Of a stretch of DNA of 64,000 nt, positions 6,776 through 41,718 are shown piece by piece (position 1 is the stretch's first letter; every line of letters starts with the position of its first letter). Source of the stretch: Pseudomonas fluorescens. GTDB taxonomy: Bacteria > Pseudomonadota > Gammaproteobacteria > Pseudomonadales > Pseudomonadaceae. The notes under the pieces were generated by a model. It searched no databases, was not told the DNA's origin, and saw only the letters and a list, made by a program, of their open reading frames with translations. The translations under genes and the position numbers were made by a program. The DNA lies in contig NZ_CABVGX010000011.1 of NCBI RefSeq assembly GCF_902497625.1, positions 1 through 64,000 of the forward strand, given 5' to 3'.

Positions 6776-6786
6776 GGTAACCACTC

Positions 6787-21099: not shown

Positions 21100-24000
21100 T
21101 CACTGCCCACCAATCAGCACCAGTACATCATCAATGTAACGACCTTCTGCGCTATGGGTTCCTGTGCGCAAATACCCAGGGATCATCTGTTGAAACTCAA
21201 GACGGTCTGAAGGCTGAAACTCAAGCAATGCTTCCAACATCGCAGGTCTCAACAAACGCTGGTGATCTGGCACATCAGGTAGCTTCGAGCGAATGACATT
21301 TTCGTCGAGCCAGATTAGCTTTTCTCGCAGACTGTGCCCCCCCTCGATAGTTATACGTTCAGCATGCTCGCTCTGGTCATCGGCTACTTGCTGTATGGCT
21401 AGTTCTTCCGACTCCTCAACCGGCACTTCGGCCACTTCTACCGGCTCGGTTCTCAACCGCGCCAGCTCCTGAAGAATCGGCTCAATCTGCACGCGAGCAT
21501 TACGGAACCAGTCCACCGACCAAATGCGGCGAATATTCCAGCCCAATTGCTCCAACACGCTTTGGCGTAAGCGATCACGGTCACGCGCCGATTTGGCCGA
21601 ATGGTACGCAGCTCCGTCGCACTCGATCCCCATCAGATAGCGGCCTGGTTGCCCCGGATCGCGGACGGCCAAATCGATGAAGAAGCCAGCCACTCCAACT
21701 TGGGGCTCGCACTGGTAGCCATGGCGCGCCAACATCTCGATGACTGCTACTTCGAAATCACTGTCGGGCGCACGATCGTTTTCTTTGATGTGAGGCATCC
21801 GGCCAGACTCAGCAAAATGCAGAAAATCACGCAGTGCCTGCACGCCTCTGCTGGAGGTCCCGGTTACAAGGACATCGGTTGAGCCAAACGAGGAGAAAAC
21901 CTGCATGCGTTTCTTCGAACGGGTATAGAGCACGTTCAAACGCCGCCATCCGCTGGCACCGTTAATTGGGCCGAAACGCTGAGGGACGCTACCACCCACT
22001 TCCATAGGACCGTAGGTACCGGAGATGTAAATAACATCTCGCTCATCACCCTGAACATTTTCCAGGTTTTTGATGAACAGCGGCTCATCCTGACCCTGAT
22101 TGCGATCCAACGCGACTTGTAGCTGCGGGCTCTGTTTAGCCAGATGCTCAAGCATCCGCTCGATTTGGTCAGCCTGTTTAACGTTCATGGCCACTACACC
22201 CAGTGACTCATCAGGGCGATGAATAACGTGGTGTTCAATGGCTTTGGCGACAACCTCTGCCTCTTCCAGGTTGCGCTGCTCGACAAAACGCCCGCGTGGC
22301 ACTCTGACAAACTTCACGCCAAACTCTGAGGATTCACGGTGTGGTGACGGGTACACCACCAAATTGCTTTCATAGAATGCTTTGTTGGAGAAGGCAATCA
22401 GACTCTCGTGGCGCGAACGGTAGTGCCAACGCAAACGTCGCAGCTTGAACAGCGGCATGGCGGCTTCCAAAATGCTTTCCGAGTCCTCAGCTAATGATGC
22501 ATCGGTTTCGTCGGTATCCGAATCGCCGCCATTGCGGGAGAAGAAGTTCGTAGGTGGCAGCTGTTTCGGGTCTCCCACGACCACAAGTTGCTTGCCCCTT
22601 GCGATACTTCCCAGTGCTTCTTCCGGACGCATTTGAGAGGCTTCGTCCATCACGACCAGATCGAAGTGGACGTGCCCTGCAGGTAAATATTGAGCGACGG
22701 CCATTGGCGACATCATGAAGCAGGGCTTAAGGCCTTGCAGTGCTTCAGCTGCACGATTCATCAAGCTACGAATCGGTACATGCCGCGTCTTTTTCTCGGC
22801 TTCGCGCTGCAGCAGGGCCAATTGCGTGAACTCTCTAACTGCGCCATGACTATTCCCAGTTGGGATATTGTTCTGACTGATACGTGACGAAACCTGTTCT
22901 CGCTGAAGGCGCTTGAGCTGCTCATCGATTTCTGCAAAACGAGCACGGATAGCCTCCTGCTCTTTGCCCGAAAACTGGCCCAGGGCGGGATTTAGCTCAA
23001 GGACTTTCAATGCCCAGCTATCAAGAAGACCAAGCAGGCAGGCATCGACGCAGCGCTCAGACACCAGTTTTTGTGTCTCGATTGCTTCGACAACTGTCTC
23101 GAAACCCAACTCAGCCAGGTGCAAGCGTAAGCGACGGTACTCGAACCAATGGTCGAGCAAATCAGGGTTCTGAGCCGCCCAGGCCAGCCGGCCAGCCATT
23201 GGGTCGAAGTCTCTTTTTTCGATGGTCTGCCACCACTGACCAGCAACAACTCCAGCACTTTGGTAGAATGATGAGATCGACTGCTCCCAATTCTCCACAG
23301 CGAACGCGAGTGTTTTAGCTTGTTGATGCCAATGGAGAATCAGGGATTCGGCTTCTTTTGACGTACATGCAGTCAACTGCGGAATGAGAATATCCCGAAT
23401 CGGCAATGCCAGAATGGGCTGAACGAAGGCGACGGTATGCCGCCAACTCGTCAACCGGGGTCGTGCCGCTGAAAGATTTTCGATCCGAGGTAGCTCTTCA
23501 CCCTGCAAGCAAGTTTGTAGTACCGCGTCGTTTTGTAAGGCTGCCGAGCGGGTTTGCCAACTTTCCACCGACTGAATCAGCTGGAGCATTTTCCCCATGG
23601 TTGGCTGCTCTTCGCTGATTACGGGTAACAAAGAGCGCAGTGCGGTTCCGATGTCCTTGATCAGGCGAACATACAACCCCTCTGAGGAGAGCAAGTCTTC
23701 TGAGCGCAAATCATGACTGTCGAAAGGCAATAGTTCTTCCAGATCCAGCCGATGATCCAGAACATCCAGCAGGTAAGGTTCAAGCTCCGCACTATCGGAT
23801 GCAACGCTGGCCAGAAGATTGCTATCAGCCTTAAGTAGGTATTCTGCAATCCATACTTTTGCTCCAAATCCCCGTCCGCACTCAGTACGTAGGAGTTTGT
23901 ACCAACCCCGAATGCGCTTAAGCGCATCGATAGGAGTATCAAGCCCTTTGAAGTGCTCACCCAGTTTCTCGGTGAACTGTTTGCTTTCATTCAGTTGACT

Positions 24001-26844
24001 GTATTTTTTCAGATAAGCGATGACATCAGGCAAGCTAACCAGAAGCTGGTTCAGCTTGAGCCCTGGTCGCGCCATGGTCAGGATTTCAGCCTTCGCAGCG
24101 CGCCATTGCCCCTTGAACCAACGGAAAAGTGATTTGTCCGCCAGAACTCGACTCAAATCTTCCAGTCGCGTATGACTTGGCAATTGATCCAGAGTGAAAT
24201 GATTCGCAGCCTGTTCCTGCAACTGCTTGACCACCGCGATGTCGCTATCCAACTCTGCGACCAACTCGTCCAAGCCCTCATCTTCGAAGCGTTTATGGCG
24301 GAGGTGTGCCAAATCCTCGGGCATCGCCGCGTGCATTTGCAGAAAGAGCACTAGTTGCTCAACCCCGACCAAATCGCTTCGCAAACCCTGAACCCCAGAT
24401 TCTTTCGATAACAGCCGAATCAGCATTTGAGCGCGCGGGGCCAGTTCCAATAACTCCTCAGCCTCTTCGATGACATCGAGCAACGCATTGAGGGAGAGGG
24501 CCTCATCGCCGTTATGCAAACGAATGGCCGCGCAGGATTTTTTGATTGACGCTATCGCTTGCCCAGAGCCAATTACATCTGCGCGCAGCGACCGAGCCAA
24601 GACAACTTGCTCGTCCAACAAGGAGTCCATACCTTGCAGCCAGAGTTTCAATGCCTCGCAAGACTCGATCTCCAGTCGCCCCAACAGATCCCAATCCTCG
24701 TCACCTTTAGGTAGCGCAAGTACCGGGATTGAAGCGGCCAAACTTCGCAGTTGATCTGGGCTATAGGTTTCCAGAACAGCTACCTGCAACTGCTCGGCTA
24801 ATTGAGGTCGAAGGGCGGCTAGACGACTCAGTGCCTGCTGAGCCAGGGAAAGACTCTCTAGAAGTGCAGAGCGCTCTGCGCCCGTCACGCGAGTTTTGGT
24901 GCTACCAAACCATGGGTGCGTCTCAAGTTTGCCAGCGTGACCAGCTTCCTCAGCCGTCTTGCGATAGATGTGTGCATAGAAGCCGGCCTGTTCTTGCAGG
25001 TGCGCTTTATCGATTCGCACCTCTGACTGCGGATGGAGATCGGCAGGTTTAATCGACAATGCCTCACGCAACCGAGTTGCCTGCATTAGCACTTCGTGAA
25101 TACTCATGCCCGATTCTTCGAACTGAGCATGCAAGTGTTGCACGTGCTTATTGAGTTGCTGCTTCAATCGCTCATAGTTGGCGATCAGATCCGTCAGCTG
25201 CTTGGGCGAGCGATAGCCGCCTCCGTTCTGAATTCGCTGGCGAATGCTGTCGATAACAGCGCTTTTTTGACTCTTATGGCTGTGCAACTCCAGGCAAAAA
25301 TCGCCCAAACCTGCTCTCGTCAATCGGGTCTTAACCACCTCAAGCGCTGCACGCTTCTCGGCAACGAACAACACTTTTTTACCTTGGGCCAGCGCCGCTG
25401 CAATCATGTTGGTGATGGTTTGAGACTTACCCGTTCCTGGCGGGCCCTCGATCACAAGATCATCACCGCGAATCACATCGATCAAGGCACTGTGCTGTGA
25501 GCTGTCGGCATCGTCGATCAGAGGAAACTGCAGGTGCACCTGTTCGATATCGTCGATTGAATGCTCGACGCAAAAGGCGCCTTGTTTTCCTGACGAATCG
25601 GCCGGTAAGCCGTCCATCCCTGTAAGTCGTTTGACCAGACCATGGTCCAGTAACGATTGGTCTTTCCAACGCCCTGGATCAAGGTCGAGATACATCATCA
25701 ACTTGCCAAACTCGAACAAACCAAGCGAAGCGAAGCGATGAACCTTCCAGTCAGGTTTGACCTTCAGCACCGTTTCGACAATTCGCTCGAAATACTCCTC
25801 GGGCGTGCTGTCGTCGGTTATCCGCGGTAACGCGATACCAAAATCGACGCGAAGCTTTTCTCGCAATGACAAGTTGGTAAGGATGTCTTCGCCAGTAGGA
25901 TGTAGGCGGTATTCGAATGTCGCGGTTTGAGGGTTGAGCTTGCCTTTTTCCAGGTTCACTGGCACCAACATCAGGGGCGCCAGGCGGGTGCTTTCTTTCC
26001 CTGCGACCGACTCATCCCACTCCAGAAACCCGAGCGCAAGATAAAGGATGTTCGCCCCCGTCTCTTCGAGTGCTGATCGCGATTGGGCATACAAAACCTG
26101 TAACCGCGACTCCATCTCTGCAGGGTAATAAAGTGTCTGAATTGCATCGTCAGAGTGCTTGGCGGGTTGCCCGCTTTCAGGGGGGCGTGGCAACTCATAG
26201 TTGATTGCCATACCAAGAATCTGCGCCCAAACCTCCGCTGTCGGCTGTTTCTTTAACTCGACAACGGCACCAGTTTTCTCGTCCAGCTTCAAAAAACCAT
26301 GGGTAATAAGCTGCCTCTCCGTTGGTTCGGGTACGGCAGCAAATCGCATGGCTTTTTCGTCTGCCAGTGACTCAAACAAGTGGTCAGGCAATTCATCAAT
26401 GATTCGTACGAACCGCTTGGAGCGTGCATGTGAAAAATTCAGCAGCCGATTGCGAGCGCTGAGATCAAGAAGCCTGCTTCTCAGTTTCTCCAGGCTATCC
26501 GGTATCTCGCTTGGGGGTGTATCAAGGTCATCCCAATCGGTAAGCGGATCAGGCTCAATGGACCTCGAATGTTTCTTGGCCTCAGCATCAAACCGATAAA
26601 CCGATCCGCCACGACCAGCCCCTTTATTGAGTAGCCCCTTGGTAACGAGCTCGTCGCGAAGGTTCCAGTACTCCTCTTCAGAGATGGAAAAACTCTGAAG
26701 CTCGGCTCGACGGTCAATCCTGTCACGGAGTGTTTTGTTGCCAACGGCCGTCCCGTCTGCCGGGACCAATTCCAGTATCCATTGCTGAACAAGTTCATAC
26801 CGTTGGATAGCCAATGATTCAGGGCCTGAGTTCACGTCGATCAC
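21100..26844 (-). CDS. Giant SF1 helicase: DUF4011-helicase-Vsr-like nuclease (Hhe-like defence protein)
   Basis: 1914 aa. In order: an N-terminal winged-helix-like part; the DUF4011 region with LLDLSARNRLLNF (about 125-137); SF1 helicase Walker A GPPGTGKS (about 467-474); a long helical insert; Walker B DEAS (about 1400) and GDPKQLPPTNFF; the C-terminal helicase core (LNVLYTRSKKRM); a Vsr/MTES_1575-type nuclease (about 1695-1790) with GFFIDLAV, MGIECDGAAYHS and RDRLRQSVLEQLGW; and a DUF3320-like tail. This matches the single-gene Hhe anti-phage architecture as I recall it. GTG 26844 is chosen without a strong ribosome site. The reading frame is intact. Confidence 0.9.
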   Translation of the reverse strand: MIDVNSGPESLAIQRYELVQQWILELVPADGTAVGNKTLRDRIDRRAELQSFSISEEEYWNLRDELVTKGLLNKGAGRGGSVYRFDAEAKKHSRSIEPDPLTDWDDLDTPPSEIPDSLEKLRSRLLDLSARNRLLNFSHARSKRFVRIIDELPDHLFESLADEKAMRFAAVPEPTERQLITHGFLKLDEKTGAVVELKKQPTAEVWAQILGMAINYELPRPPESGQPAKHSDDAIQTLYYPAEMESRLQVLYAQSRSALEETGANILYLALGFLEWDESVAGKESTRLAPLMLVPVNLEKGKLNPQTATFEYRLHPTGEDILTNLSLREKLRVDFGIALPRITDDSTPEEYFERIVETVLKVKPDWKVHRFASLGLFEFGKLMMYLDLDPGRWKDQSLLDHGLVKRLTGMDGLPADSSGKQGAFCVEHSIDDIEQVHLQFPLIDDADSSQHSALIDVIRGDDLVIEGPPGTGKSQTITNMIAAALAQGKKVLFVAEKRAALEVVKTRLTRAGLGDFCLELHSHKSQKSAVIDSIRQRIQNGGGYRSPKQLTDLIANYERLKQQLNKHVQHLHAQFEESGMSIHEVLMQATRLREALSIKPADLHPQSEVRIDKAHLQEQAGFYAHIYRKTAEEAGHAGKLETHPWFGSTKTRVTGAERSALLESLSLAQQALSRLAALRPQLAEQLQVAVLETYSPDQLRSLAASIPVLALPKGDEDWDLLGRLEIESCEALKLWLQGMDSLLDEQVVLARSLRADVIGSGQAIASIKKSCAAIRLHNGDEALSLNALLDVIEEAEELLELAPRAQMLIRLLSKESGVQGLRSDLVGVEQLVLFLQMHAAMPEDLAHLRHKRFEDEGLDELVAELDSDIAVVKQLQEQAANHFTLDQLPSHTRLEDLSRVLADKSLFRWFKGQWRAAKAEILTMARPGLKLNQLLVSLPDVIAYLKKYSQLNESKQFTEKLGEHFKGLDTPIDALKRIRGWYKLLRTECGRGFGAKVWIAEYLLKADSNLLASVASDSAELEPYLLDVLDHRLDLEELLPFDSHDLRSEDLLSSEGLYVRLIKDIGTALRSLLPVISEEQPTMGKMLQLIQSVESWQTRSAALQNDAVLQTCLQGEELPRIENLSAARPRLTSWRHTVAFVQPILALPIRDILIPQLTACTSKEAESLILHWHQQAKTLAFAVENWEQSISSFYQSAGVVAGQWWQTIEKRDFDPMAGRLAWAAQNPDLLDHWFEYRRLRLHLAELGFETVVEAIETQKLVSERCVDACLLGLLDSWALKVLELNPALGQFSGKEQEAIRARFAEIDEQLKRLQREQVSSRISQNNIPTGNSHGAVREFTQLALLQREAEKKTRHVPIRSLMNRAAEALQGLKPCFMMSPMAVAQYLPAGHVHFDLVVMDEASQMRPEEALGSIARGKQLVVVGDPKQLPPTNFFSRNGGDSDTDETDASLAEDSESILEAAMPLFKLRRLRWHYRSRHESLIAFSNKAFYESNLVVYPSPHRESSEFGVKFVRVPRGRFVEQRNLEEAEVVAKAIEHHVIHRPDESLGVVAMNVKQADQIERMLEHLAKQSPQLQVALDRNQGQDEPLFIKNLENVQGDERDVIYISGTYGPMEVGGSVPQRFGPINGASGWRRLNVLYTRSKKRMQVFSSFGSTDVLVTGTSSRGVQALRDFLHFAESGRMPHIKENDRAPDSDFEVAVIEMLARHGYQCEPQVGVAGFFIDLAVRDPGQPGRYLMGIECDGAAYHSAKSARDRDRLRQSVLEQLGWNIRRIWSVDWFRNARVQIEPILQELARLRTEPVEVAEVPVEESEELAIQQVADDQSEHAERITIEGGHSLREKLIWLDENVIRSKLPDVPDHQRLLRPAMLEALLEFQPSDRLEFQQMIPGYLRTGTHSAEGRYIDDVLVLIGGQ

Positions 26845-27459: not shown

Positions 27460-28026
27460 ATGGTTGATCTGGACCTTAATGGATCGCGCGGATATTTCAG
27501 GGATCTGGCCATTCCGGCTTTTGACGACTTCTGGTGTGTTTACCAGGCCGATAGGCCCCTCGATCGGCGCAACTTCTCACTGGTGTACAGGCGCTTGGTC
27601 GCTGCCAGCATGCTGCTGAACCACTTTCAGACAAGATCGCGGTAGTGCTCTTGGCCCAGTGTGAAAAAGGGCGAGGATCGTCTGAAGAAGTTGGAGCCAC
27701 TCATCGAGGCCGTCTCGCCGGTTGCTTTGTTGCAAATAGATGCGTGCCGTCACTTTTCAAACGACCTGAAGCACGTAGCACACAAACTTCATTCTTTCGA
27801 CTCAAGACCTCGCAATCCTGGCTATGACGACCCGGGCGAGCACGGTGTTTTCTGCTTTTTCGTCAAGTATCCAAACAAGCCCGATCCGGTTGATCTATGC
27901 ATTGCTGCGGGCGATGCGTTCAATTTCTGGCGCGGTTACTGCTCTAACGAGTTCAGAGCTGTAGCTCTACACAAAGGATTGACTACGCTTCTGAGGATAG
28001 GCCAAGAGGTCCGCACCAACCAATGA
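27460..28026 (+). pseudogene. Hypothetical gene interrupted by paired frameshifts
   Basis: The frame beginning at ATG 27460 (MVDLDLNGSRGYFRDLAIPAF) runs into TAG at 27643-27645, then reopens in the same frame at GTG 27661 (KKGEDRLKKLEPLIEAV to the end). The middle reads sensibly in another frame (DKIAVVLLAQCEKG), so one base lost after CACTTT and one gained in GAAAAAGG would restore a single protein of about 185 aa. Product family not recognised. Its stop overlaps the next gene's ATG. The 120-aa downstream part could still be made from GTG 27661. Confidence 0.6.
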
Positions 28027-28897: not shown

Positions 28898-29515
28898 TCA
28901 GGCGTTGGCCAAGTCCCTGATCCTGAGGACTGTGGTCGTTGAGCAGTTGGCGTGCCTGGCTGTTGCGCGGATGCCAAGGCCGGCACCGAGCAATTCCGTA
29001 ACGCGTTTGTGCAGATCGTCATCAATCGGCCGACCCTGATACTTACCTGCCGCTTTGGCCTTTTCGATACCCTGGGCCTGGCGCTCGCGGCGTTGCTCGT
29101 AATCCTTGCGGGCAATGGCGGCCATCATTTCCACCAGCATGGAGTTGATAGCGCCCAGCATTCGCCCGGTGAACTCGTCGCCCTTCGTGTCCTGCATTCC
29201 CTGGTGACTGGTCGGCAGATCGAGCGCGACGATGCGCAGGCCCTTGGAATCAATCGTGGCCTTGAGCTTCTGCCAATCCTCCACCGGCAAGCGGGAGAGC
29301 CGGTCTATCGACTCCACCAGCAACACGTCACCGTTGCGCGCATCTTTGAGCAGACGCAGCAACTCGGGCCGGTCTGCGGAGGCGCCGCTGGCATTCTCCA
29401 GATATACGCTCGCGATGACCTTGTTATGGTCGCTGGCGAACTGTTCAAGCGAGGCCTGGGCGCGGCTGGCGTCTTGCTCTTCGGTTGATGCTCGGAGATA
29501 TGCGCGGATGAACAT
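28898..29515 (-). CDS. Serine recombinase (resolvase family)
   Basis: 205 aa. The catalytic domain has YLRASTEEQDASRAQ with the active Ser, then LLVESIDRLSRLP (motif with catalytic Arg), an E-helix, and a C-terminal helix-turn-helix (GIRATARHANCSTTTVLRI). The size and layout are those of transposon resolvases or plasmid invertases. ATG 29515. Direct repeats just upstream (29526-29539 and 29612-29625) may form its recombination site. No transposase gene accompanies it, so it is either a relic of a Tn3-like unit or a stand-alone resolution system. Confidence 0.9.
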   Translation of the reverse strand: MFIRAYLRASTEEQDASRAQASLEQFASDHNKVIASVYLENASGASADRPELLRLLKDARNGDVLLVESIDRLSRLPVEDWQKLKATIDSKGLRIVALDLPTSHQGMQDTKGDEFTGRMLGAINSMLVEMMAAIARKDYEQRRERQAQGIEKAKAAGKYQGRPIDDDLHKRVTELLGAGLGIRATARHANCSTTTVLRIRDLANA

Positions 29516-29630: not shown

Positions 29631-29849
29631 CTATAACTGCCGTAGTCGCATGATGGCGCCTGTGATGTCTTGAGCATTCCGGTCCAGCGTTTCGATGGCC
29701 GCAATTGCGTTAGCGGCAACGCTCCCCACTCCATTCTCAGAAAGCCACTTGGTCACCTCCTCAATGGCTGCACATATGGCGTGCTGGTTGTGCAGGAGCA
29801 GTGTGAGTGCGTCTGCTGTGGCTATGTTGGCTTCAGAGTTATCTGACAT
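29631..29849 (-). CDS. Small hypothetical protein
   Basis: 72 aa, one predicted helical protein (MSDNSEANIATADALTLLLH to IMRLRQL), no recognised domain. ATG 29849, with AAGGACG upstream on the minus strand. It lies just upstream of the recombinase gene on the same strand. Function unknown. Confidence 0.6.
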   Translation of the reverse strand: MSDNSEANIATADALTLLLHNQHAICAAIEEVTKWLSENGVGSVAANAIAAIETLDRNAQDITGAIMRLRQL

Positions 29850-30224: not shown

Positions 30225-31727
30225 TTATCGGCTAACGCGGAAGCGACCACTCAACCGGCTCAAACGATCGGCAAATTGGCTGAGTTGCTGGCCATCGTTA
30301 TTAAGCTTGTTTGCATCGCCGAACGTTTGCTCAGCCACTTTTTGCACACTGTGAAGATGCTGACTGACTTCTGCACTGGTCGCAGCCTGCTCGTGGGTGG
30401 CAGCGGCAATCAGCTCGTTCATTTGAGTAATGGCGCTGATGTCTTGCGCTACGGCGCCGAGCAGTTCTGCAGTTGCCTGACTGTCTCGCACGCAGCTGCG
30501 CGCACTGTCTCGACTTTCCTGCATGGCAGTCACTGCTTGACGGCTGCCTTGTTGCAGGCCGCTGATGATTTCTTGGATCTCAGCGGTGGACAACGCTGTT
30601 TTCTGCGCAAGATTACGTACCTCGTCAGCCACGACGGCAAAACCACGACCATGCTCGCCAGCACGTGCGGCTTCAATCGCTGCGTTTAGGGCCAGCAGGT
30701 TGGTTTGATCCGCAATTGAACGGATCACTTCCAGAACCTTGCCGATTTTCTCGGACTGCTCTGCCAGCGCCTGAACCTCGGTTTCAGTAACATCGATTTG
30801 TGTGGCTAGTTTGCCAATCTCGCTACGCACATGGTTGACCGAGCGGCTGCCCTCGGCAGCCTGTTGATTCGCGGTTCGAGCTGCCGTTGCGGCGCCATCG
30901 GCATGCCCAGCAACTTCGTCAATAGCGGTGCTCATCTGCAGCATGGCTGAGCTCATGCAGGTAATTTCGCTTTGCTGCTGCTCCGCACCGGAGCTTAGGT
31001 GGCCGGTGGTTTGCAGCAGACTGTCACCCATTTTTTTCAGGCTTTGGGTATGGTTAACCACTTCACCGACCAACTCATCTAAGGTGCTGAGAAATTGGTT
31101 AAAGCCTAGGCTAACTTTGCCTTGGGCAGTGCTGCGGCAAACGAGGTTTATTTCGTCATCATTCTCAATTAGCTTTTCGGCCGCTTGCATCAGCGCCGCG
31201 CTTTCAACGGCTTCCGCGTGGTTCTGCATCGCCAAGTAAATCAGGATGGCGCTTTCTGCAACGACGTACATTGCATGCAGAAAAATTATTGACCAACTGC
31301 CGCTCGGCAGTACAACCACGTCTACACCTTGTGCTTGCAATGCAAAGAAACTCAGGTGGTGCACTGCAATCACCAACGCTGCGACCAAAATCGGCAGCCA
31401 ATCGCGGTAATACACTAAGAAGGCAAGTAACACAAAGATGCTGAAGTGCATCTCCATCATGCCGCCTGCCTGGTTGATGTGCAGGGCCGCCATCACCATA
31501 TACGCCGCGCCCATCACGCAACGCAACAGGCGTTGGCCGCTAATGAGTTGGTTAAGTACGCTCATTACTACAGCCGTACCACCAGCGACCAGGAGCGCTT
31601 GACCCCAAGTACCATTCCAAAACGCGAGGCCGACCGAGTACACAAACATCAGCCACAGCACCCCCAGCATGACTCGGTCTGCTTTTTGGTAGTGCTCTTG
31701 AAGGGTGGGGGATAGGTCAGATGACAT
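30225..31727 (-). CDS. Methyl-accepting chemotaxis protein with six-helix membrane module
   Basis: 500 aa. About six hydrophobic segments occupy residues 20-175 with hardly any periplasmic loop. A HAMP-like linker follows, and then the cytoplasmic signalling domain with the conserved hairpin tip [41 protein letters not shown]. It should signal to CheA/CheW. The sensor is unusual in having no periplasmic ligand-binding domain, so the signal is probably membrane-borne or energetic. ATG 31727 starts [13 protein letters not shown]; an ATG at 31778 is in frame. It is cargo within the island, next to a thioredoxin-like gene on the same strand. Confidence 0.9.
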
Positions 31728-31905
31728 GGTGAGAGGCTCGAGAGGTTGTGCTGCAGTCGTGGTGAGTGCGGCAATCATATATTCGTAAATAGCGTTAGCT
31801 CGATTTAGGCGAGCGGCAACTGCTCACAATTGCTGTATCGGCAAGTTGAGTCTAGGGATGAGCATGAATTTGCGCATAACGCCATAGCGCGCTGCCGGTT
31901 CGTCG

Positions 31906-32478
31906 TCAATTGCTCGGCCAGTCGCAGAAGCAGCCTATGGCCATTGTGTTGACTGCGTTTACGGGTCTGCCAGCACTCAGGGCGTCTAGAATGGGCTCGA
32001 TAATGCTGTTACTAGAGGTGCAGGTAGCGCCTTCACTGTAGGGGCCGAAATATGCCAGTTGGCCTGTTCGGTCCCAGATTGCCACAGCCGGGCTGGCGGG
32101 GATTTTGTAGCTGCCGCTCAAAGCCGGTAAGGTTTTCAGGGCGTTCAGGCCACCAGATAATTGGCCGTTGCTACCTGGGGTTTGTACCGCGTAGAAACTT
32201 ACACCCTGTGGGCCGAAGCGCTTGATCAGCTCGGTCAGGTGTTGCTGGTTGCCTATATTGCACGGGCAGGATGGGTCCCAGAAATGTATCAGGCGGATCT
32301 GGCCTGGACCAGCAAGCTCATCAGGCAGGCGCAGCTGTTCACCGTAGAACAGCGCGGTCTGCTCACTGAAGCTGCGCAGGTAGCGCACTTCGTACCACCA
32401 GTAGGCAACTAGCATGGAGAGGCCCCAGAGCATAATCAGCAGGCTTGCTATGAGGGTTTTGCGATTCGGGCGGGTCAT
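31906..32478 (-). CDS. Membrane-anchored thioredoxin-like protein (DUF6436-like)
   Basis: 190 aa. An N-terminal membrane anchor (about residues 8-30, ASLLIMLWGLSMLVAYWWY) is followed by a thioredoxin-fold domain with IRLIHFWDPSCPCNIG, where CPC replaces the usual CxxC. Further Cys lie near the C terminus (GCFCDWPSN). It should face the periplasm. ATG 32478 is preferred; an upstream ATG at 32514 would add 12 residues. It precedes the chemotaxis receptor gene on the same strand, 178 bp upstream, so the two may be expressed together. A link between redox state and taxis is speculation. Confidence 0.75.
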   Translation of the reverse strand: MTRPNRKTLIASLLIMLWGLSMLVAYWWYEVRYLRSFSEQTALFYGEQLRLPDELAGPGQIRLIHFWDPSCPCNIGNQQHLTELIKRFGPQGVSFYAVQTPGSNGQLSGGLNALKTLPALSGSYKIPASPAVAIWDRTGQLAYFGPYSEGATCTSSNSIIEPILDALSAGRPVNAVNTMAIGCFCDWPSN

Positions 32479-32912
32479 GGGCAGTCTTTGATTTTTAGAT
32501 GTGCAACTTACCATAGCTAGGGCTTACCAGTCCGCGGCCAAAGCCACAGCCGTCGCTTTCCTCCTGAGTTATTCGACAACTCATCGGGCCTGACGGTAAC
32601 GGTTTTACGATGTCGCGTGAGTCTGTCGCAGGTACTTTATGAACTGCGGCATGACATGCGACGATGTGGTACTAAGAAGGATGCGAGGTGAGCCCGATAC
32701 GCTTGGTACCACCCTGTGCAATGCCGCAGCGAGATATGTGGGAGAGTTTATGTTTTTCACGACTGACCGGAAATGGCCGTTCGCTGCCGGTCGTATCTTC
32801 GGTGTGGCACCGGTCAATTCGGTTGAAAACAGCCGTCAACACCAAATCAATTAGATGATGATCGCCGCCCCGGTTGGCTATGCCGTTGACAGGCCGCTTG
32901 GTGATGGTCCAC
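32479..32912. other. Intergenic stretch
   Basis: 434 bp with no supported gene. A plus-strand ORF at 32639-32854 (71 aa) lacks a ribosome site and a recognisable product. Bases up to about 32600 probably include the promoter of the thioredoxin-like gene. Confidence 0.35.
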
Positions 32913-33556: not shown

Positions 33557-33769
33557 TCAGTCTAGGATCTCGCGACGAATCTTGTCCTGCTCTCGCAGCT
33601 CTTCGGCCAGCTCTCGCAGCAACGGCCTCATTCCACCTGTCCAGGCATTGCGCGCCGCGGCGGCCTTACCCTCGGTGCTTCGTGGCCCGGTGCTTTGTTC
33701 CCAAGGTCGCCATTGCCGGATCAGCTCCGCCTGCCGCGCCCGTCGCTCGGGCGTCCAACCGTTCGCCAT
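33557..33769 (-). CDS. Small hypothetical island protein
   Basis: 70 aa, strongly basic (GWTPERRARQAELIRQWRPW then STGPRSTEGKAAAARNAW). This is a short conserved type found in Proteobacterial prophages and islands, with no known function; it may bind nucleic acid. ATG 33769 has GGAGG six bases upstream. Its 5' end lies inside the longer neighbouring gene (33666-34271) in another frame. A truncated copy sits at 28508-28630. Confidence 0.75.
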   Translation of the reverse strand: MANGWTPERRARQAELIRQWRPWEQSTGPRSTEGKAAAARNAWTGGMRPLLRELAEELREQDKIRREILD

Positions 33770-34271
33770 GCTCAACCTCCAATAGTTCGTTCTGCGCTTT
33801 TTTGGTTTTCCGCGTGCGCGCGGGCTTCTCTTGAATACCGTTATTGACCTGGACCTGATTGCCGATGTTCGCCTGCTTCACGAAAGCGACCTGCTTGGGG
33901 GTTTTAAGTTCGCCCAAGGTCTGCAAGGTCGCCCGGGCCTGGTTCTGAGCCTTAAGTGCGAGACGCATGTAGGACTCAAGCCCGCCCATGTTTTTAGACG
34001 ACAGTGCACGACTCGCAAGATGCACGAATAGAGCATCCAGAGAGTGCGCTTGCGATACCAGCATGTCTTCTGCTCGGCTCATGTCGCCGCGGTTGATTGC
34101 AGTCGTCTGCCGACCCAGTTCGAGGACAGCCTCGAGGAACGACGTCTTGCCGAGCAGGTTACTGCTGACAAGCAATGCGGCGTTCTTGCACTCCGGAGTC
34201 AGGTAATTACGGGCATTGGCCCGTTCCTCATTCTCCTCAATGGCAAACTCCACTGACGGGGCATCGTTCAT
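33666..34271 (-). CDS. Hypothetical island/phage-type protein
   Basis: 201 aa, soluble. The middle has long helices, and the segment VAFVKQANIGNQVQVNN followed by a basic tail is a pattern I associate with phage-derived proteins of unknown function. ATG 34271 overlaps the stop of the upstream gene (ATGA). Its last third overlaps the small gene at 33557-33769 in a different frame, about 104 bp, so the true C terminus may be uncertain. Confidence 0.65.
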   Translation of the reverse strand: MNDAPSVEFAIEENEERANARNYLTPECKNAALLVSSNLLGKTSFLEAVLELGRQTTAINRGDMSRAEDMLVSQAHSLDALFVHLASRALSSKNMGGLESYMRLALKAQNQARATLQTLGELKTPKQVAFVKQANIGNQVQVNNGIQEKPARTRKTKKAQNELLEVEHGERLDARATGAAGGADPAMATLGTKHRATKHRG

Positions 34272-35050
34272 TCGCTCGTCTCCATCTGGGTGTTGTTATA
34301 ACGCTGGCGCAGATCAACGCCAGCCGGACAGTAACGGCCGGTTGCCGCATGGCAGGCGCGGCAGCTCATCAGATGGTTGGTGTGTGCCGCATCGGCCTCT
34401 CGCCATGCCTGTGACGCCTTAGCTGCGGTGTGGATGATGTGCTGCGGCTTAACTTCCTCCACGGTGTGGATCTCGGCCGTTTGCTCAACCCGCTGCGGCC
34501 GGTTGATCCACGCCGGGCTAACGTGGATCGTGTCGGCCACCAGCACGACGTCCGCATCGGCCAGCTCGGCAAGGTCGTGCGGCTCCAAATGCCCCTCGTC
34601 CAGCAGTACAGCAGGATGGGTGCCGAGCAGACGCGCGACACGAGGCAGCCAGAGGCTCGACGGAGTAGGTTTAGACGATGGCGTGGCGAGTGTGCCGATT
34701 AGCGCCTTGACGATCTCCGCCTCGGAGAGAGGACGCTCGAAGCCTGGGACTGCAACTACCGCCAACAGGGTATCGCCGTGCTGCTGATGAGCCTTTTGTT
34801 TTGTAATAGCGGTGTCGATATCGCCGCATGCTTGCACCACGTACCCGTTGGCCAACACCAGCAGGTGCAACCAGCAAAGGGTCGGATCATTAGCCGCATT
34901 CAGTTCGGCAATGAGCTCGACGCGGTGCTTGCATACATAGAGTCGGTCGGCATCCGTGATGCGGTCAGCGGGGCGCAGGCGAAGTTTATCTCCGTTGAGC
35001 TCGGCGGTGAGGCCGGCCCGGAGCAGGTAGTCCAGGGCGGCCACGATCAA
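34268..35050 (-). CDS. Protein with TubC-like N-terminal domain
   Basis: 260 aa. Residues 1-50 (ALDYLLRAGLTAELNGDKL to KHRVELIAEL) resemble the TubC N-terminal docking domain, which in Pseudomonas islands is often attached to replication-associated proteins. The rest is unrecognised, apart from a Cys/His cluster near the end (CRACHAATGRYCPAG) that could bind zinc. Both ends overlap neighbours by ATGA, so it is embedded in the primase/helicase operon. Confidence 0.7.
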   Translation of the reverse strand: MIVAALDYLLRAGLTAELNGDKLRLRPADRITDADRLYVCKHRVELIAELNAANDPTLCWLHLLVLANGYVVQACGDIDTAITKQKAHQQHGDTLLAVVAVPGFERPLSEAEIVKALIGTLATPSSKPTPSSLWLPRVARLLGTHPAVLLDEGHLEPHDLAELADADVVLVADTIHVSPAWINRPQRVEQTAEIHTVEEVKPQHIIHTAAKASQAWREADAAHTNHLMSCRACHAATGRYCPAGVDLRQRYNNTQMETSE

Positions 35051-36282
35051 AACTCCTCAAAGTCGACTGCAGGCGACTTGGCATGCTGTCCGTTCTGTGT
35101 CCGGTTTTCGTCCGCTTCCCGTCCGGTTTGTCCGGTATTAACGATCTTCAGACTGTCCGTCCGGTCCGGTTCCATTAAGGACTGCAGGACAGGACGGACA
35201 AGAAATACATGTGCACCGTCGATTCGGATTTGCTGACGATCAGTCAGCGTGTTTTTGACATCGTGAAACCGCTGGCGAGAAATTTCGGCTTCTTCACACT
35301 TCGCTTTCCATGCGTCAAGTGTGATGAGTACCGGGTGATCCTCCCGGCCCTGGCTATTCAACCGTTGGGCGATCTCCGCGTGCATCTGCTCGAGCGTTTC
35401 CAGCGCAGCCTTTTGCTGCTTACCCAACTTTGCCAACACTGGCGCTGCTGGTGCTGTGTACCCAGTCAGACGCAGCGCGGCACCGCTGATCAGGCTGCCA
35501 CTGTCGTCGCGCACTGATACTCCGACCAGTTCGAAGGCAAGTGAGGACGGCTCTTCTGCATCCTTCATCTTGCGCGGGATCAGTCGAACCAGGTTGTCTT
35601 CGTTGCTGCGGCTCACTTCGAATTCAGCATCTGCAGCACCTTTCAGTGCCGACGATCCGCGTGCGCCTCGCTCGCCATCCTTGCCGCTGTGGTGGACGAT
35701 CAAGACAGTGGCCTTCCAGTGCCGACGCAGTGCGTCAACGTTGCGGATGAAATGCCCCACGTCAGTTGCGCTGTTTTCGTCGCCTCCGAAATTACGGGCC
35801 ATGGTATCGATCACAATCAGCACCGGGGATTCGCCAGTAGCTTCGGCAATCTGCTTAACCGCTTCTGCTACTTTTGCAGCATTTGTTTCGCTGGACAGAT
35901 CCGTAGGGGCCTCTGATACGAACAGCAGTTCCGGCAAGGCAGTGTCGTTATGCTGCGCCCATGCGTGAAGGCGCCGAGCGATACCGTTGTGACCTTCCCC
36001 TGCTATGTAAATTACAACTCCCGGTTTCACCAAATGGCCGTGGAACGGCATGCCGCTAGCAATACAGCAAGACAAGTCCAAAGCAACGAACGATTTCCCC
36101 TTACCGGGAGGGCCGTACATCACCGTGAGTGCGTCTTCCTCGATATAGCTTTCAACCAGCCAGGCAACAGGCTTGATTGGCATATGGCAGGCCGCTACAA
36201 AACGGAAGTCGGGAGTGCTGATCTGCTGCTGGCGCTGTGTTGCCCACTGGTTGTGGTAGAGATCTTTTGTTTTCGCACTCAT
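35047..36282 (-). CDS. RepA-like helicase, AAA family (replication of the island)
   Basis: 411 aa, RecA/DnaB-like ATPase of the RSF1010 RepA/AAA_25 type. Walker A is GPPGKGKSFVALDL (about residue 56), Walker B VLIVIDTMARNFGG (about 154), followed by IVHHSGKDGERGARGSSALKGA typical of the family. It should unwind DNA at the element's origin. A C-terminal extension probably includes a winged helix. The gene overlaps its neighbours on both sides (ATGA) and follows the primase gene directly. Confidence 0.88.
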   Translation of the reverse strand: MSAKTKDLYHNQWATQRQQQISTPDFRFVAACHMPIKPVAWLVESYIEEDALTVMYGPPGKGKSFVALDLSCCIASGMPFHGHLVKPGVVIYIAGEGHNGIARRLHAWAQHNDTALPELLFVSEAPTDLSSETNAAKVAEAVKQIAEATGESPVLIVIDTMARNFGGDENSATDVGHFIRNVDALRRHWKATVLIVHHSGKDGERGARGSSALKGAADAEFEVSRSNEDNLVRLIPRKMKDAEEPSSLAFELVGVSVRDDSGSLISGAALRLTGYTAPAAPVLAKLGKQQKAALETLEQMHAEIAQRLNSQGREDHPVLITLDAWKAKCEEAEISRQRFHDVKNTLTDRQQIRIDGAHVFLVRPVLQSLMEPDRTDSLKIVNTGQTGREADENRTQNGQHAKSPAVDFEEF

Positions 36283-36671
36283 GCTTTCAACTCCAAGCCT
36301 GCCAAGCGATCACGCGCCAGCTCGAAGCGATGGCGATCCTCTTCAGACAGTTCTGCACCTTGGGCGATTAGGGATTGGCCAATGAGGTGGACCATACGCT
36401 CACGCTCGATGGCAGCTCTGCTCGGACCCAGTCGACGTGGCTTGCTGCCGCAATCAGGGAACAGGTCGCGCAACTCCAGCTCGACGGAGGCGAGGATCTC
36501 GGTCACCGAACAGCCGACCCAGCACTTCACCAACAGCTTCCCGTCCTCGACCTCTGTGATATGCAGGCTGGGAGTCTTGTCATCATGTGCCGGGCAGCGA
36601 GCCGTCCACTTACCCGATTTCACTTGGCGAACTTTGTCGAGGAGTGGCAAAAGTTTGTCTGCAGGCTTCAT
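36279..36671 (-). CDS. CHC2 zinc-finger primase-type protein, short
   Basis: 130 aa. A CHC2-type zinc finger is visible: KWTARCPAHDDKTPSLHI and DGKLLVKCWVGCSVTEIL, with C26, H29, C50 and C54 as likely ligands. This is only the zinc-binding N-terminal domain of a DNA primase; no TOPRIM domain follows. Such short proteins recur next to RepA-like helicases in satellite and plasmid modules, where they may recognise primer sites. ATG overlaps nothing upstream; its stop overlaps the helicase start. Confidence 0.85.
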   Translation of the reverse strand: MKPADKLLPLLDKVRQVKSGKWTARCPAHDDKTPSLHITEVEDGKLLVKCWVGCSVTEILASVELELRDLFPDCGSKPRRLGPSRAAIERERMVHLIGQSLIAQGAELSEEDRHRFELARDRLAGLELKA

Positions 36672-36675
36672 TCAA

Positions 36676-37017
36676 TTACTCCTCGGAGATGAAGTCGAAG
36701 CGCTGCAGGGCGTTACATGCGGACTTATTGGTGCTGGCAGCCTTTTTCACTTCGACTACCTCACGCATTTCAATGCGTTTGCGTACCCATTCCTGGACTT
36801 CAGACAGAACGAAACCCACGGGTGCGCCACGGGACTTACTGTCGCTCAGTTGAACGGGACGAGGAAACGTGGGGTCGTCTTTGAGGCGTTTGTAGATGGT
36901 CGGCCGAGCAAGGCCGGTAATGGCTGCCAGATCGGGCATCCGGATGATGGTGGTGCCGGAGTCGAACGGAAGGCTGGCCGCGCGGCTTGCTGCTTTGAGG
37001 GGTTGGGTGTTGTGCAT
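36676..37017 (-). CDS. AlpA-family helix-turn-helix regulator
   Basis: 113 aa. IIRMPDLAAITGLARPTIYKRLKDDPTFPRPVQLS followed by GFVLSEVQEWVRKR is the AlpA/excisionase-like MerR-type fold. In P4-type elements AlpA proteins activate the integrase promoter and excision. It heads the operon of primase, helicase and TubC-like genes; only 4 bp separate its stop from the primase start. ATG 37017. Confidence 0.9.
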   Translation of the reverse strand: MHNTQPLKAASRAASLPFDSGTTIIRMPDLAAITGLARPTIYKRLKDDPTFPRPVQLSDSKSRGAPVGFVLSEVQEWVRKRIEMREVVEVKKAASTNKSACNALQRFDFISEE

Positions 37018-37079
37018 ATCTGTTTCCCGCCATTGATTGAGACGGGAGCAGACTGATGACTTAAACAGGCTAAAAAAAT

Positions 37080-37124
37080 CCCCTCAACGTGCCGGATATG
37101 GGGATATCCGGCACGTAAAAGGGG
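37080..37124 (-). terminator. Long perfect hairpin with T run
   Basis: ACGTGCCGGATAT (37087-37099) and its perfect complement (37104-37116) flank a GGGG loop. Outer CCCCT/AGGGG pairs extend the stem. On the minus strand the stem is followed by ATTTTTTT, a strong rho-independent terminator for the gene ending at 37138, just before the alpA promoter region. An operator role for the palindrome is possible too. Confidence 0.8.
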
Positions 37125-37137
37125 TTATCCGATACGG

Positions 37138-37731
37138 TTAAGGGGTTTTACGGCGGCGACCTGCTAAACGGGCGTAGTGCGGTGCTATTGGTTTGATCCA
37201 GTCCGCCACGCGTCCTATGGCTGGAAGATCCGCAGTTCCCTCTCGCTTCAAAATATCCATGACTAGTTTGGCCATGTCCGTTACTCGATACTCCTGCCCG
37301 GTGTCGGCTTGCCATATTTGACTTGCGATGGTTTTGGCGCGTTCAACAATAATCGATTTCTTCCTATTGGCTTCCAAGAATGGACGCGCTTTCTTGAACT
37401 CGGATTCACTAGACCTGAAGATCAAATCTTCAACGGCGCGGACCCCTACCAAAATTATTGCTGTAGCGCTCCCCATGATCAATTCTTCACTTTCCGGGTG
37501 CTTCTCCAGCAGCAAGGTCAAGTTCACCAAGGAACGACCAAGCATCTCAGCGGTCTTTTCTCGATCCTCCCCAGACAGGTGCTCGGTCATACTCGCTGCG
37601 AAAAGCGCTAGATCCTCAATTTGGATGCGTTCGTTATTTTTTTTGATTTCCTCAAATCGTTCTGCGGCTAAATCATGGCTCTCTTTGACTGACCTATATG
37701 TTGGCGGTATGTATTCGTCTTTCAATCTCAT
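37138..37731 (-). CDS. Hypothetical protein
   Basis: 197 aa, soluble, helical, with no recognised domain (AAERFEEIKKNNERIQIEDLALF; later KKSIIVERAKTIASQIWQ). ATG 37731 has TGGAAG seven bases upstream; an in-frame TTG lies 15 bases earlier. It is located between integrase and alpA on the same strand, and a strong hairpin terminator follows. The position suggests a regulatory or accessory gene of the element. Confidence 0.65.
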   Translation of the reverse strand: MRLKDEYIPPTYRSVKESHDLAAERFEEIKKNNERIQIEDLALFAASMTEHLSGEDREKTAEMLGRSLVNLTLLLEKHPESEELIMGSATAIILVGVRAVEDLIFRSSESEFKKARPFLEANRKKSIIVERAKTIASQIWQADTGQEYRVTDMAKLVMDILKREGTADLPAIGRVADWIKPIAPHYARLAGRRRKTP

Positions 37732-37938
37732 CGCTTCCAGCGGCAACGCATTAATTTCGGCTGAAAGTGCTCGCGAGTACCCACGCTTCGCCCCCTCCCA
37801 AAGGGCCGCCGAATTGCACTATTCCTACGTTCTCGGAGCAATGCCGGAGGTCGACTGATTGGATGCGGTATATCCAAGCAGCGTTGTATTTAGTCTATAT
37901 CTGTCTATGGGCCATAGGGAAGGTCGGCAATCAACGCA

Positions 37939-39180
37939 CTATGCTTTTTTGTTGAACTGGCCTTGCACCACGTTGCCGGCGGCTAGCGTGTCCAAGTGGT
38001 CGGCGTACCACTGCATCATGGTCGTGCGTTGCTCAAGGTACTGGGCCTTGTTGTAGATGCCGGAGATGCCCTCCTCCTTGTGTGCCAGTTGCGCCTCAAT
38101 GTGATCTTTTTGCCAGCCGTTTTCGCGCAATAGGGTGCTGGCAGTGTGGCGGGTGCCATGTCCGACCAAGCGACCTTTGTACCCAATCCCGGCGAATACT
38201 TTGTTGATCGTGTTTTCACTGATTGTCGGGTTTTTCGGTCCGACGCCGGGGAACAGCCAGCGGCTACGGCCTGTCACCCTGTGCAGTTCGCGTAGGGCAT
38301 CGATCGCCTGGCTGGGCAGGGGGACCACATGATCCCGGCGCATCTTCATCTTGGCGGCGGGTGTCGTCCAAGTGGCGACATCAAAGTTTACTTCCGCCCA
38401 CTCCGCCAGCCGCACCATTCCGGGCCGGGATGCTGTCCAGATGCAAAGCCATGCAGCGGTCTTGGCAGGCAGGCGGCTAGTTGTAGATTTCAATGCCCGG
38501 ATGAACTCTGGCAGTTCGGGCTCCAGTAAGTGCGGGTGTTGCTGAGTCTTGGGGGCGGGTGCAGCAATATCGCGCAGCCTGCTGGCCGGATCGTTCTCCG
38601 TCAGCCCTAGGCCAATGGCCCGTCCAAATATCTGATTTATCCAAGTGCGACACTTCTCGGCAACGTTATGAGCGTTGCGCGCTTCGAGTGAGGCTTGCAG
38701 GGCGGCGCAGTCGGTGCGGGTGATTTCGTCCAACTGCATGTCACCCAGAGCAGGGAGTATGTCCTTCTCCAGATAGGTGCGGATCTTACTCAGGGTGGAG
38801 TCGGCCAGCCCTTTATCGACTTTGGCCTTAAGCCAGCCATCCGCCGCTACGCGGAATGTCCGGGTTTTGGCAGCTACAGTGGCAGCCTTGGTGGCGAGCT
38901 TTTGTTCCTGTGGGTCAATACCGTCGCTGATTAGTTTCCTCAGCTTGTCCGCTTCCTCGCCAGCGCGCTTAGCGCTCACTTCGGGATAACTGCCTAACCC
39001 CATCCACGCCCATTTACTTGCCGCGTTCTTGTATCGGAGCTGCCACGATTTACCGCCATTCGGTTTCACCCGAAAGTAAAGCCCGCGCTCATGTAGTTCT
39101 CGATATTCCTGTGTGTCTGGCTCAAGACTGCTCAGTACGGTATCAGCCAACGGGCGGCGCTTGATATCGGAACGCTTCAT
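37939..39180 (-). CDS. int: P4-type tyrosine integrase
   Basis: 413 aa. The N-terminal DUF4102 arm-binding domain (LHERGLYFRVKPNGGKSWQLRY) precedes the catalytic domain. The catalytic set includes Arg in ASRPGMVRL, the HGTRHTAST box (H-x-x-R type), the LAHKEEG His, and the Tyr nucleophile in IYNKAQYL near residue 390. The gene begins 167 bp from the 3' end of tRNA-Leu, pointing away from it, which is the standard layout for integration at a tRNA 3' end. Full length, so the element may still be mobile. Confidence 0.95.
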   Translation of the reverse strand: MKRSDIKRRPLADTVLSSLEPDTQEYRELHERGLYFRVKPNGGKSWQLRYKNAASKWAWMGLGSYPEVSAKRAGEEADKLRKLISDGIDPQEQKLATKAATVAAKTRTFRVAADGWLKAKVDKGLADSTLSKIRTYLEKDILPALGDMQLDEITRTDCAALQASLEARNAHNVAEKCRTWINQIFGRAIGLGLTENDPASRLRDIAAPAPKTQQHPHLLEPELPEFIRALKSTTSRLPAKTAAWLCIWTASRPGMVRLAEWAEVNFDVATWTTPAAKMKMRRDHVVPLPSQAIDALRELHRVTGRSRWLFPGVGPKNPTISENTINKVFAGIGYKGRLVGHGTRHTASTLLRENGWQKDHIEAQLAHKEEGISGIYNKAQYLEQRTTMMQWYADHLDTLAAGNVVQGQFNKKA

Positions 39181-39302: not shown

Positions 39303-39346
39303 TGTGCTGTTTCGTGAACTGTCTGAGACAGCTAGAAACATATGGT

Positions 39347-39431
39347 TGGTGCCCCGAGGGAGACTCGAACTCCCACTCCTTTCGAAAACGGATTTTGAAT
39401 CCGCCGCGTCTACCAATTCCGCCATCAGGGC
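39347..39431 (-). tRNA. tRNA-Leu(CAA)
   Basis: 85 nt including an encoded CCA. Acceptor stem GCCCTGA/TCGGGGC, D-loop GGCGGAATTGGTAGACGC, anticodon loop TTCAAAA with anticodon CAA, a type-II variable arm, and T-loop GTTCGAGTC. The 3' 20 nt are repeated imperfectly at 18628-18646: this tRNA is the integration target of the island. Confidence 0.96.

Positions 39432-39538: not shown

Positions 39539-41718
<2,180 letters not shown>

What the first reader, a model, noticed from the sequence alone, without database searches (positions are those of the whole stretch)
33557..37731. Satellite-like replication module driving a defence-bearing element
int, an unknown gene, alpA, a short CHC2 primase, RepA-like helicase, TubC-N protein and phage-type small genes are packed with ATGA overlaps and no capsid or conjugation genes. 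With a giant Hhe-like protein as cargo at the other end this resembles a phage satellite or similar mobilisable element carrying anti-phage genes.
Basis: inference. Interest (0 to 1): 0.7.

Follow-up and report, generated by a model that had tools for sequence, protein, structure and literature searches.

The report
Satellite-like defence island at tRNA-Leu
A 20.7-kb mobile DNA island, built like small elements that ride inside phage particles, has inserted itself at a leucine-tRNA gene and carries anti-phage genes; it belongs to a scattered family whose members swap their DNA-copying genes but keep the same two unnamed neighbour genes.

Summary
The genes described are there: int, X, alpA, CHC2, RepA-type helicase, a 260-aa protein and two small genes form a compact minus-strand module. 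The element is larger than stated: a 20.7-kb island (18,628-39,365) at tRNA-Leu(CAA), with attL, attR and empty sites in relatives. Distal cargo includes Hhe (1,914 aa) and PDC-S11. No capsid, terminase or relaxase family was found in the island ORFs scanned.

Corrections: the CHC2 protein is a zinc-finger domain without TOPRIM, not a complete primase; 'TubC-N' was not confirmed; the small genes are not phage-type. They (orfY-orfZ) are the module's steadiest part: an orfY profile hits 12 of 398 same-genus genomes, behind three different helicase families, and neither gene matches 50,697 phage records.

Satellite link: int, X, alpA and the tubC C-terminus match, in order, genes of PhiAH14b, a reported induced and packaged Pseudomonas satellite. 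A bounded relative (L248) combines 12 of 22 queried PhiAH14b proteins, two tail-assembly genes and orfY-orfZ. Published precedent: a Pseudomonas defence island transduced by a jumbo phage. Best reading: a helper-dependent phage satellite with defence cargo (0.62); excision and packaging were not shown. A conjugation-mobilised element is the main rival.

The parts
18628..18646 (+). attL (distal): TTGGTGCCCGAGGGAGACT, one C fewer than attR
   Evidence: the same one-C-less form is the distal copy in 8 of 11 other islands at this tRNA in which a distal copy was found (20 flanks examined)
39346..39365 (+). attR: TTGGTGCCCCGAGGGAGACT, 3' end of tRNA-Leu(CAA)
   Evidence: 10 of 27 relative flanks join sequence matching the window up to 18,646 directly to this tRNA end (empty site)
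39347..39431 (-). tRNA-Leu(CAA), integration site, next to a queA-like gene (39,539-40,588 +; name recalled from the protein)
37939..39180 (-). tyrosine integrase
   Evidence: PF00589, Arm-DNA-bind_3; about 78% identical in six islands at the same tRNA, in two pieces in a seventh (L040), 55% in L032; 42% to PhiAH14b p01
37138..37746 (-). gene X between int and alpA; C-terminal domain shared with L054 X (35%) and PhiAH14b p02 (29%, E 1.2e-5)
36676..37017 (-). alpA regulator/excisionase family
   Evidence: PF05930, 46 bits
36279..36671 (-). stand-alone CHC2 zinc-finger protein (130 aa, no TOPRIM)
   Evidence: the zinc ligands are lost in relative L053
35047..36282 (-). RepA-type (AAA_25) helicase
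   Evidence: 67-71% in six other loci; 34-46% in further viral-collection loci, some with capsid genes
34268..35050 (-). 'tubC' protein; C-terminal Cys-rich domain shared with PhiAH14b p17 (46%, E 3e-11)
   Evidence: no Pfam family
33666..34271 (-). orfY, signature gene of the family
   Evidence: no match in 50,697 phage records
33557..33775 (-). orfZ, signature gene overlapping orfY
   Evidence: no match in phage records
28508..33668 (.). 5-kb nested segment between two 137-bp copies of the orfZ 3' end (28,508-28,644 and 33,532-33,668, 87% identical)
31906..32514 (-). DUF6436 protein (cargo)
30225..31778 (-). methyl-accepting chemotaxis protein (cargo)
29631..29849 (-). small accessory gene (phrog_12397)
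28898..29515 (-). serine resolvase/invertase; 97% identical copy in a second element of the same genome
28023..28505 (+). family gene found beside orfZ in L149 and L151 (52-62%)
27661..28026 (+). small ORF upstream of 28,023, overlapping it by 4 bases
21100..26844 (-). Hhe defence protein (DUF4011, SF1 helicase domains, MTES_1575 nuclease), 1,914 aa
20434..21039 (-). 201-aa protein between Hhe and PDC-S11, no family match
19210..20196 (-). candidate defence protein PDC-S11
   Evidence: PADLOC E 9e-139

Best explanation
It is a 20.7-kb helper-dependent integrative element of the phage-satellite kind. Integrase and AlpA (with X) excise it at tRNA-Leu. The CHC2 protein and the RepA-type helicase, using host primase and polymerase, amplify it, probably as circles or concatemers. 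A helper phage then packages the copies, and the element re-integrates in a new cell. Hhe and PDC-S11 protect the carrier from other phages. Shown: boundaries, empty sites, gene families, collinearity with a reported satellite, defence-type cargo by HMM. Inferred: excision, replication, packaging, defence activity.
For: attL/attR and empty sites. Integrase, AlpA and helicase families. int, X, alpA and the tubC C-terminus match p01, p02, p03 and p17 of PhiAH14b in order; that element was reported as mitomycin-induced, packaged in helper capsids and without an identifiable terminase (PMC4936722, passages). Relative L248 has 12 of 22 queried PhiAH14b proteins (of 29 annotated) at 60-90% identity, two gpI-like tail-assembly genes and orfY-orfZ inside 17.3 kb at tRNA-Phe; gpI homologues also occur in loci fetched as distant helicase relatives. 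Some distant helicase relatives lie in short elements with capsid and terminase genes, which I take for cf-PICIs. The int-adjacent DUF6387 gene of Marinobacter relatives is weakly similar to the int-adjacent gene of one of these (E about 2e-4). Defence genes follow the module in many relatives. Published precedents: PICMI and I55, transduced by a jumbo phage.
Against: No packaging gene, cos/pac site or helper was identified. orfY-orfZ have no phage match but lie on two small Polaromonas plasmids, one typed MOBV. PhiAH14b itself has no orfY-orfZ, and the window has no match to its primase, helicase or gpI. The X and alpA matches are weak (E about 1e-5). The CHC2 protein lacks a catalytic primase domain. 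Some relatives (L241, L245, L246) carry cargo without recognised defence genes. No excision data exist.
Confidence: 0.62

Rival explanations
1. An integrative element mobilised by conjugation: it replicates as a plasmid-like circle and uses an oriT recognised by another element's relaxase.
For: orfY and orfZ lie close together on two small Polaromonas plasmids, one typed mobilizable MOBV. Elements without a relaxase but with an oriT are known (PMC11389934, passages). Relaxase-bearing elements do use this tRNA: L043 has Relaxase and MobC.
Against: No relaxase or MobC in 17 island ORFs scanned with Pfam. Order and several genes follow PhiAH14b. Relative L248 carries phage tail-assembly genes. 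No oriT search was made.
Confidence: 0.2
2. An immobile or dying defence island that moves only by chance transduction.
For: attL and attR differ by one base; a 5-kb nested insertion sits in the element; cargo such as a chemotaxis receptor is not satellite-like. A related island, L040, has its int and replication gene in pieces.
Against: The one-base difference recurs in 8 of 11 islands, so it is probably a shared site variant and not decay, though one of the 8 (L043) has an unrelated integrase. Module reading frames are intact and under purifying selection.
Confidence: 0.13
3. Remnant of a prophage.
For: Integrase and AlpA are shared with phages; some distant helicase relatives lie beside capsid genes.
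Against: No head, portal or terminase gene was seen in bounded relatives L148, L151, L245 and L248 by ORF reading. orfY-orfZ have no match in phage records.
Confidence: 0.05

Closest known systems
PhiAH14b, satellite of PhiAH14a in Antarctic Pseudomonas (PMC4936722, KU708005)
   Same: int, second gene (C-terminal domain), alpA, replication genes, p17/tubC domain in the same order; no terminase or capsid gene
   Different: The window has CHC2 plus RepA-type helicase instead of TOPRIM primase plus DUF927 helicase, has orfY-orfZ and defence cargo, and lacks gpI
PICMI satellites of Vibrionaceae (PMC10803314)
   Same: int, a gene next to int, alpA, replication gene, then a defence hotspot; no capsid-remodelling genes
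   Different: tRNA-Leu instead of fis, no DUF3987/DUF5906 primase, 20.7 kb against an average of 6.7 kb
I55/I23/I44 tmRNA islands of Pseudomonas, I55 transduced by a jumbo phage (PMC12595487)
   Same: Tyrosine integrase, AlpA, direct repeats, defence systems, no transfer genes
   Different: Other site; no YqaJ, RadC or Gp2-like family among the Pfam hits here; another gene order
cf-PICIs of Enterobacterales (label mine, from gene content and recall)
   Same: Related RepA-type helicase (35-46%); gpI-like gene shared with relative L248
   Different: The window has no capsid, portal or terminase gene found
Hhe defence protein (PADLOC)
   Same: HMM match over residues 229-1913 of 1,914
   Different: Activity not tested

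Membership tests
phage satellite (general) | Site-specific integration with att repeats | tested here: met
phage satellite (general) | Packaged in particles made by a helper phage | not testable with these tools
   needs induction or infection and particle DNA
PhiAH14b-type satellite | int, p02-like gene, alpA and p17 domain in order | tested here: met
   int E 1e-90, X E 1.2e-5 (74 aa), alpA E 7e-6, p17 E 3e-11 (50 aa)
PhiAH14b-type satellite | TOPRIM primase plus DUF927 helicase, p18-p20 | tested here: not met
   no match in the window; met in relative L248
PICMI | int and alpA | tested here: met
PICMI | DUF3987/DUF5906 primase | tested here: not met
   DUF3987 is present in the second element of the same genome (L218)
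PICMI | integration at fis | tested here: not met
   tRNA-Leu
P4-like satellite | Psu, delta, epsilon, alpha (Pfam profiles named in PMC8628076) | tested here: not met
   none among the Pfam hits of 17 island ORFs; Sid has a custom profile only and was not tested
cf-PICI | own capsid and packaging genes | tested here: not met
   (ORFs scanned)
I55-type tmRNA island | tmRNA site with YqaJ, RadC and Gp2-like genes | tested here: not met
IME with relaxase | relaxase | tested here: not met
   positive control L043 is detected
IME with oriT only | oriT recognised by a helper relaxase | not tested
   no oriT search was made
Hhe defence system | nearly full-length Hhe protein | tested here: met
   552 bits
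Hhe defence system | anti-phage activity | not testable with these tools
   needs plaque assays

The most novel reading that the evidence does not exclude
orfY-orfZ mark an unnamed family of satellite-type elements in Pseudomonas and relatives. In it a constant two-gene unit, absent from phage records, is coupled to interchangeable helicases (RepA-type, DUF3987, DUF927) and to an adjoining cargo slot that often holds defence genes, and performs the step that makes these elements transferable (helper hijack or packaging adaptor). The CHC2-only protein acts as a non-catalytic replication loader.
Probability: 0.3. Interest if true: 0.75.

Novelty: new variant of a known kind. Interest (0 to 1): 0.55.

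Why it matters
How defence islands move between bacteria is largely open. This island ties a defence-bearing tRNA island to a reported Pseudomonas satellite through shared gene order and a bridging element, and it offers a two-gene marker (orfY-orfZ) for finding more such elements that phage-gene libraries miss. It makes a direct test possible: does loss of orfY or orfZ stop transfer but leave excision and replication intact?

Tried and rejected
The CHC2-helicase order at the same tRNA: not found in 20 flanks that I chose from 99 genomes searched, 98 with a match (L051 held only 5.9 kb). DNA similarity to phages: integrase pieces and one short piece in the helicase region. The helicase as family marker gave only the own genome among 398 same-genus genomes at E 1e-30, so I moved to orfY. 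An orfY single-sequence scan of viral contigs gave no relative; with an alignment it returned only L224 and L225, the same contigs as L053 and L054. PDB profile searches: none for orfY; for orfZ five weak hits, E 0.005 at best. Paper searches for TubC-N and for 'integrative element / defence island / primase' gave nothing useful. att repeats: 4 of 17 relative loci tested had tRNA-anchored repeats inside the stretch held (L148, L151, L245, L248); L150 and L246 had repeats not at a tRNA; the second element of the own genome (C6) had only a 14-base one. The nearness of the distal orfZ copy to the C6 element (126 of 137 sites, against 119 to the local copy) is too slight for a claim.

Results against my reading: orfY-orfZ on plasmids and not in phages or PhiAH14b; no gpI, terminase or cos/pac found in the window element (cos/pac were not searched for by any motif); weak X and alpA similarity to PhiAH14b; L241, L245 (a 1,659-aa adhesin-like protein, by reading) and L246 (an Hsp70-like protein, by reading) carry cargo without recognised defence genes; L247 and L249 are remnants without integrase. 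Cargo scans were made on proteins that I picked because they looked promising, not on all ORFs: 30 relative cargo proteins in three PADLOC calls (74, 75, 80), of which 24 had a hit at E 1e-10, some partial (L040 Ppl). The six without a hit were L149:17869-19959, L218:16093-19053, L221:2077-3075, L055:12635-13240, L036:12831-14069 and L038:9845-12433.
Full report
1. Observation. The CHC2 protein matches PF01807 below the Pfam cut-off and matches primase families over the zinc finger only. X, the 260-aa 'TubC-N' protein, orfY and orfZ match no Pfam or NCBIfam family. ATGA overlaps join CHC2/helicase, helicase/tubC and tubC/orfY. No relaxase or structural family appeared among 17 island ORFs scanned with Pfam, and no structural family among 20 scanned with PHROGs.

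2. Boundaries. The tRNA-Leu(CAA) lies at 39,347-39,431. A 13-base repeat of its 3' end lies at 18,634. In 10 of 27 flanks from related genomes, sequence matching the window up to 18,646 runs straight into the tRNA end: these are empty sites. The distal copy lacks one C. The same one-C-less form is the distal copy in 8 of 11 other islands at this tRNA for which a distal copy was found (20 flanks examined), so it is probably a shared site variant and not decay; one of the 8, L043, has an unrelated integrase. The island is 18,628-39,365, about 20.7 kb. It therefore includes the DUF6436 protein, the chemotaxis receptor, the resolvase, Hhe and PDC-S11.

3. The same site elsewhere. Of 20 flanks fetched, 8 hold an integrase related to int (about 78% in six, in two pieces in L040, 55% in L032), 7 of these also hold alpA, and 0 hold CHC2, this helicase, tubC, orfY or orfZ. 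The 7 islands share a replication protein by BLAST, split in L040; Pfam named it DUF927 in L035, the only one scanned. An MvaT-like gene is in 4 of 11 islands (Pfam in L035). Of ten cargo proteins that I picked from six of these islands and from L039, eight matched PADLOC at E 1e-10, among them Avs3a, IetS, PDC-M01A, PDC-S46 and PDC-M31A/B; the L040 match (Ppl) is partial. L039 has no integrase match in the stretch held. A relaxase-bearing element (L043) also uses the tRNA, which shows that such genes are recognised when present.

4. Relatives of the module. The helicase is rare: only the own genome among 398 same-genus genomes at E 1e-30, and 11 of 369 class genomes at E 1e-20, own included. 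Close homologues (67-71%) lie in viral-collection contigs L053/L054 and L055 and in Denitrificimonas (L148), two Marinobacter (L149, L151) and Pseudomonas mandelii (L150). L053/L054 keep CHC2-helicase-tubC-orfY-orfZ; L148 has a TOPRIM primase in place of CHC2; L149 and L151 have a protein 51-52% identical to the PhiAH14b primase, then helicase-orfY-orfZ. L055/L150 keep CHC2-helicase, but orfY was not found there. Picked cargo proteins after orfZ match type I or IIG restriction-modification, AbiD, PDC-S20 or PDC-S35.

5. orfY-orfZ as the constant part. A profile of orfY found 12 of 398 same-genus genomes, and a single-sequence search 5 of 398 phylum genomes, own included in both. The own genome has a second copy on another contig (orfY 92%, orfZ 94%) behind a TOPRIM protein and DUF3987, with GmrSD and type I restriction cargo. 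Of 11 further same-genus loci fetched, 9 have an integrase within the stretch, 7 a primase, CHC2 or helicase gene between int and orfY, 9 an orfZ match, and 5 a restriction gene on the orfZ side by a limited marker set; L241, L245 and L246 carry cargo without recognised defence genes (by reading). Helicases preceding orfY belong to three families: RepA-type, DUF3987 and DUF927. Neither orfY nor orfZ matches any of 50,697 phage records at E 1e-3. orfY occurs in 2 and orfZ in 5 of 72,556 plasmid records, two of them the same Polaromonas plasmids. dN/dS between window and relatives is 0.06-0.30, some pairs with saturated dS.

6. CHC2. The protein is 130 aa, and its gene ends in an ATGA overlap with the helicase gene, so truncation is unlikely. 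The zinc ligands are present in the window and L055 but lost in L053. It cannot be a complete DnaG-type primase; priming is presumably by host DnaG (inference).

7. Link to known satellites. PhiAH14b (16.8 kb) was reported as induced with mitomycin C and packaged in capsids of PhiAH14a, with no identifiable terminase (PMC4936722: passages read, abstract among them). Its p01, p02, p03 and p17 match int (42%, E 1e-90), X (29%, E 1.2e-5), alpA (35%, E 7e-6) and the tubC C-terminus (46%, E 3e-11) in the same order. p17 matches occur in 11 of 46 loci tested, none of them among the 20 tRNA-Leu flanks. L248 is bounded by a 19-bp tRNA-Phe repeat (17.3 kb) and holds 12 of 22 queried PhiAH14b proteins (29 are annotated; helicase 83-84%), two gpI-like tail-assembly genes and orfY-orfZ. 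gpI homologues also occur in loci fetched as distant helicase relatives, among them L113, whose E. coli kin are annotated with capsid, portal and terminase. L221 has a gene beside orfZ with a partial match to tail fibres. PhiAH14b has no orfY-orfZ.

8. Mechanism. By analogy with PICMI, where alpA, int and the int-neighbour gene are needed for excision and the primase for replication (PMC10803314, passages), and with I55, transduced by a jumbo phage (PMC12595487, outline and passages), I propose phage-triggered AlpA expression, Int-mediated excision, helicase-driven amplification, packaging by a helper and re-integration at tRNA-Leu. Excision, amplification and packaging are inferred. The role of orfY-orfZ is open; the plasmid hits favour a replication or maintenance role, the position beside gpI in L248 a packaging role.

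9. Nested segment. A 137-bp repeat of the orfZ 3' end (87% identical) flanks a 5-kb block with the chemotaxis receptor, DUF6436 and a resolvase; in L149 and L151 the gene at 28,023 sits directly beside orfZ. The block is therefore probably a later acquisition at the orfZ boundary. The resolvase recurs in two other contigs of the genome.

10. Verdict. A real, bounded, defence-bearing integrative element of satellite type; a new variant, not a member of PICMI, P4-like, cf-PICI or I55-type families by the features tested. The paper searches that did not show this family were made; they cover open-licence PubMed Central only. The genus name Pseudomonas for the window is inferred from relatives; the genome itself is unnamed.

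Noticed in passing
window 14188-14388 (-): C4 antisense RNA with its a1/b1 targets (Rfam), left of the island in a low-GC stretch with an HNH-DUF3298 gene and a weak FRG-domain match; perhaps another mobile-element remnant.
   Followed up: no
L218 (G000:C6:20000-39999) and L219: Second orfY-orfZ element in the same genome with DUF3987 replication gene, GmrSD and type I restriction cargo, and a 97% identical resolvase; its ends were not found.
   Followed up: partly
L248:10478-11715: Two tandem gpI-like tail-assembly genes inside a 17.3-kb element in which no other tail or head gene was recognised by reading.
   Followed up: partly
L053:243-635: CHC2-family protein that has lost the zinc ligands but keeps its place before the helicase.
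   Followed up: no
L146, L147 (Polaromonas plasmids): orfY and orfZ homologues close together on small plasmids with RepA, ParA and a recombinase.
   Followed up: partly
L032: Island at the same tRNA-Leu with what reads like VgrG-type secretion genes instead of defence genes (by reading).
   Followed up: no
L221:9504-10391: Protein with partial tail-fibre matches next to orfZ in an element beside an mnmE-like gene.
   Followed up: no
L245:2360-7339: 1,659-aa adhesin-like protein (by reading) as cargo of a 14.9-kb orfY element at tRNA-Thr.
   Followed up: no
window 6001-8000: GC falls to about 48% between 1-kb windows of 60% and more to the left and 58-64% to the right; genes there not examined.
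   Followed up: no
window 32916-33146: Diverged direct duplication (30-base copies 201 bases apart, 80%) in the non-coding stretch after orfZ; possible origin or packaging site, untested.
   Followed up: no
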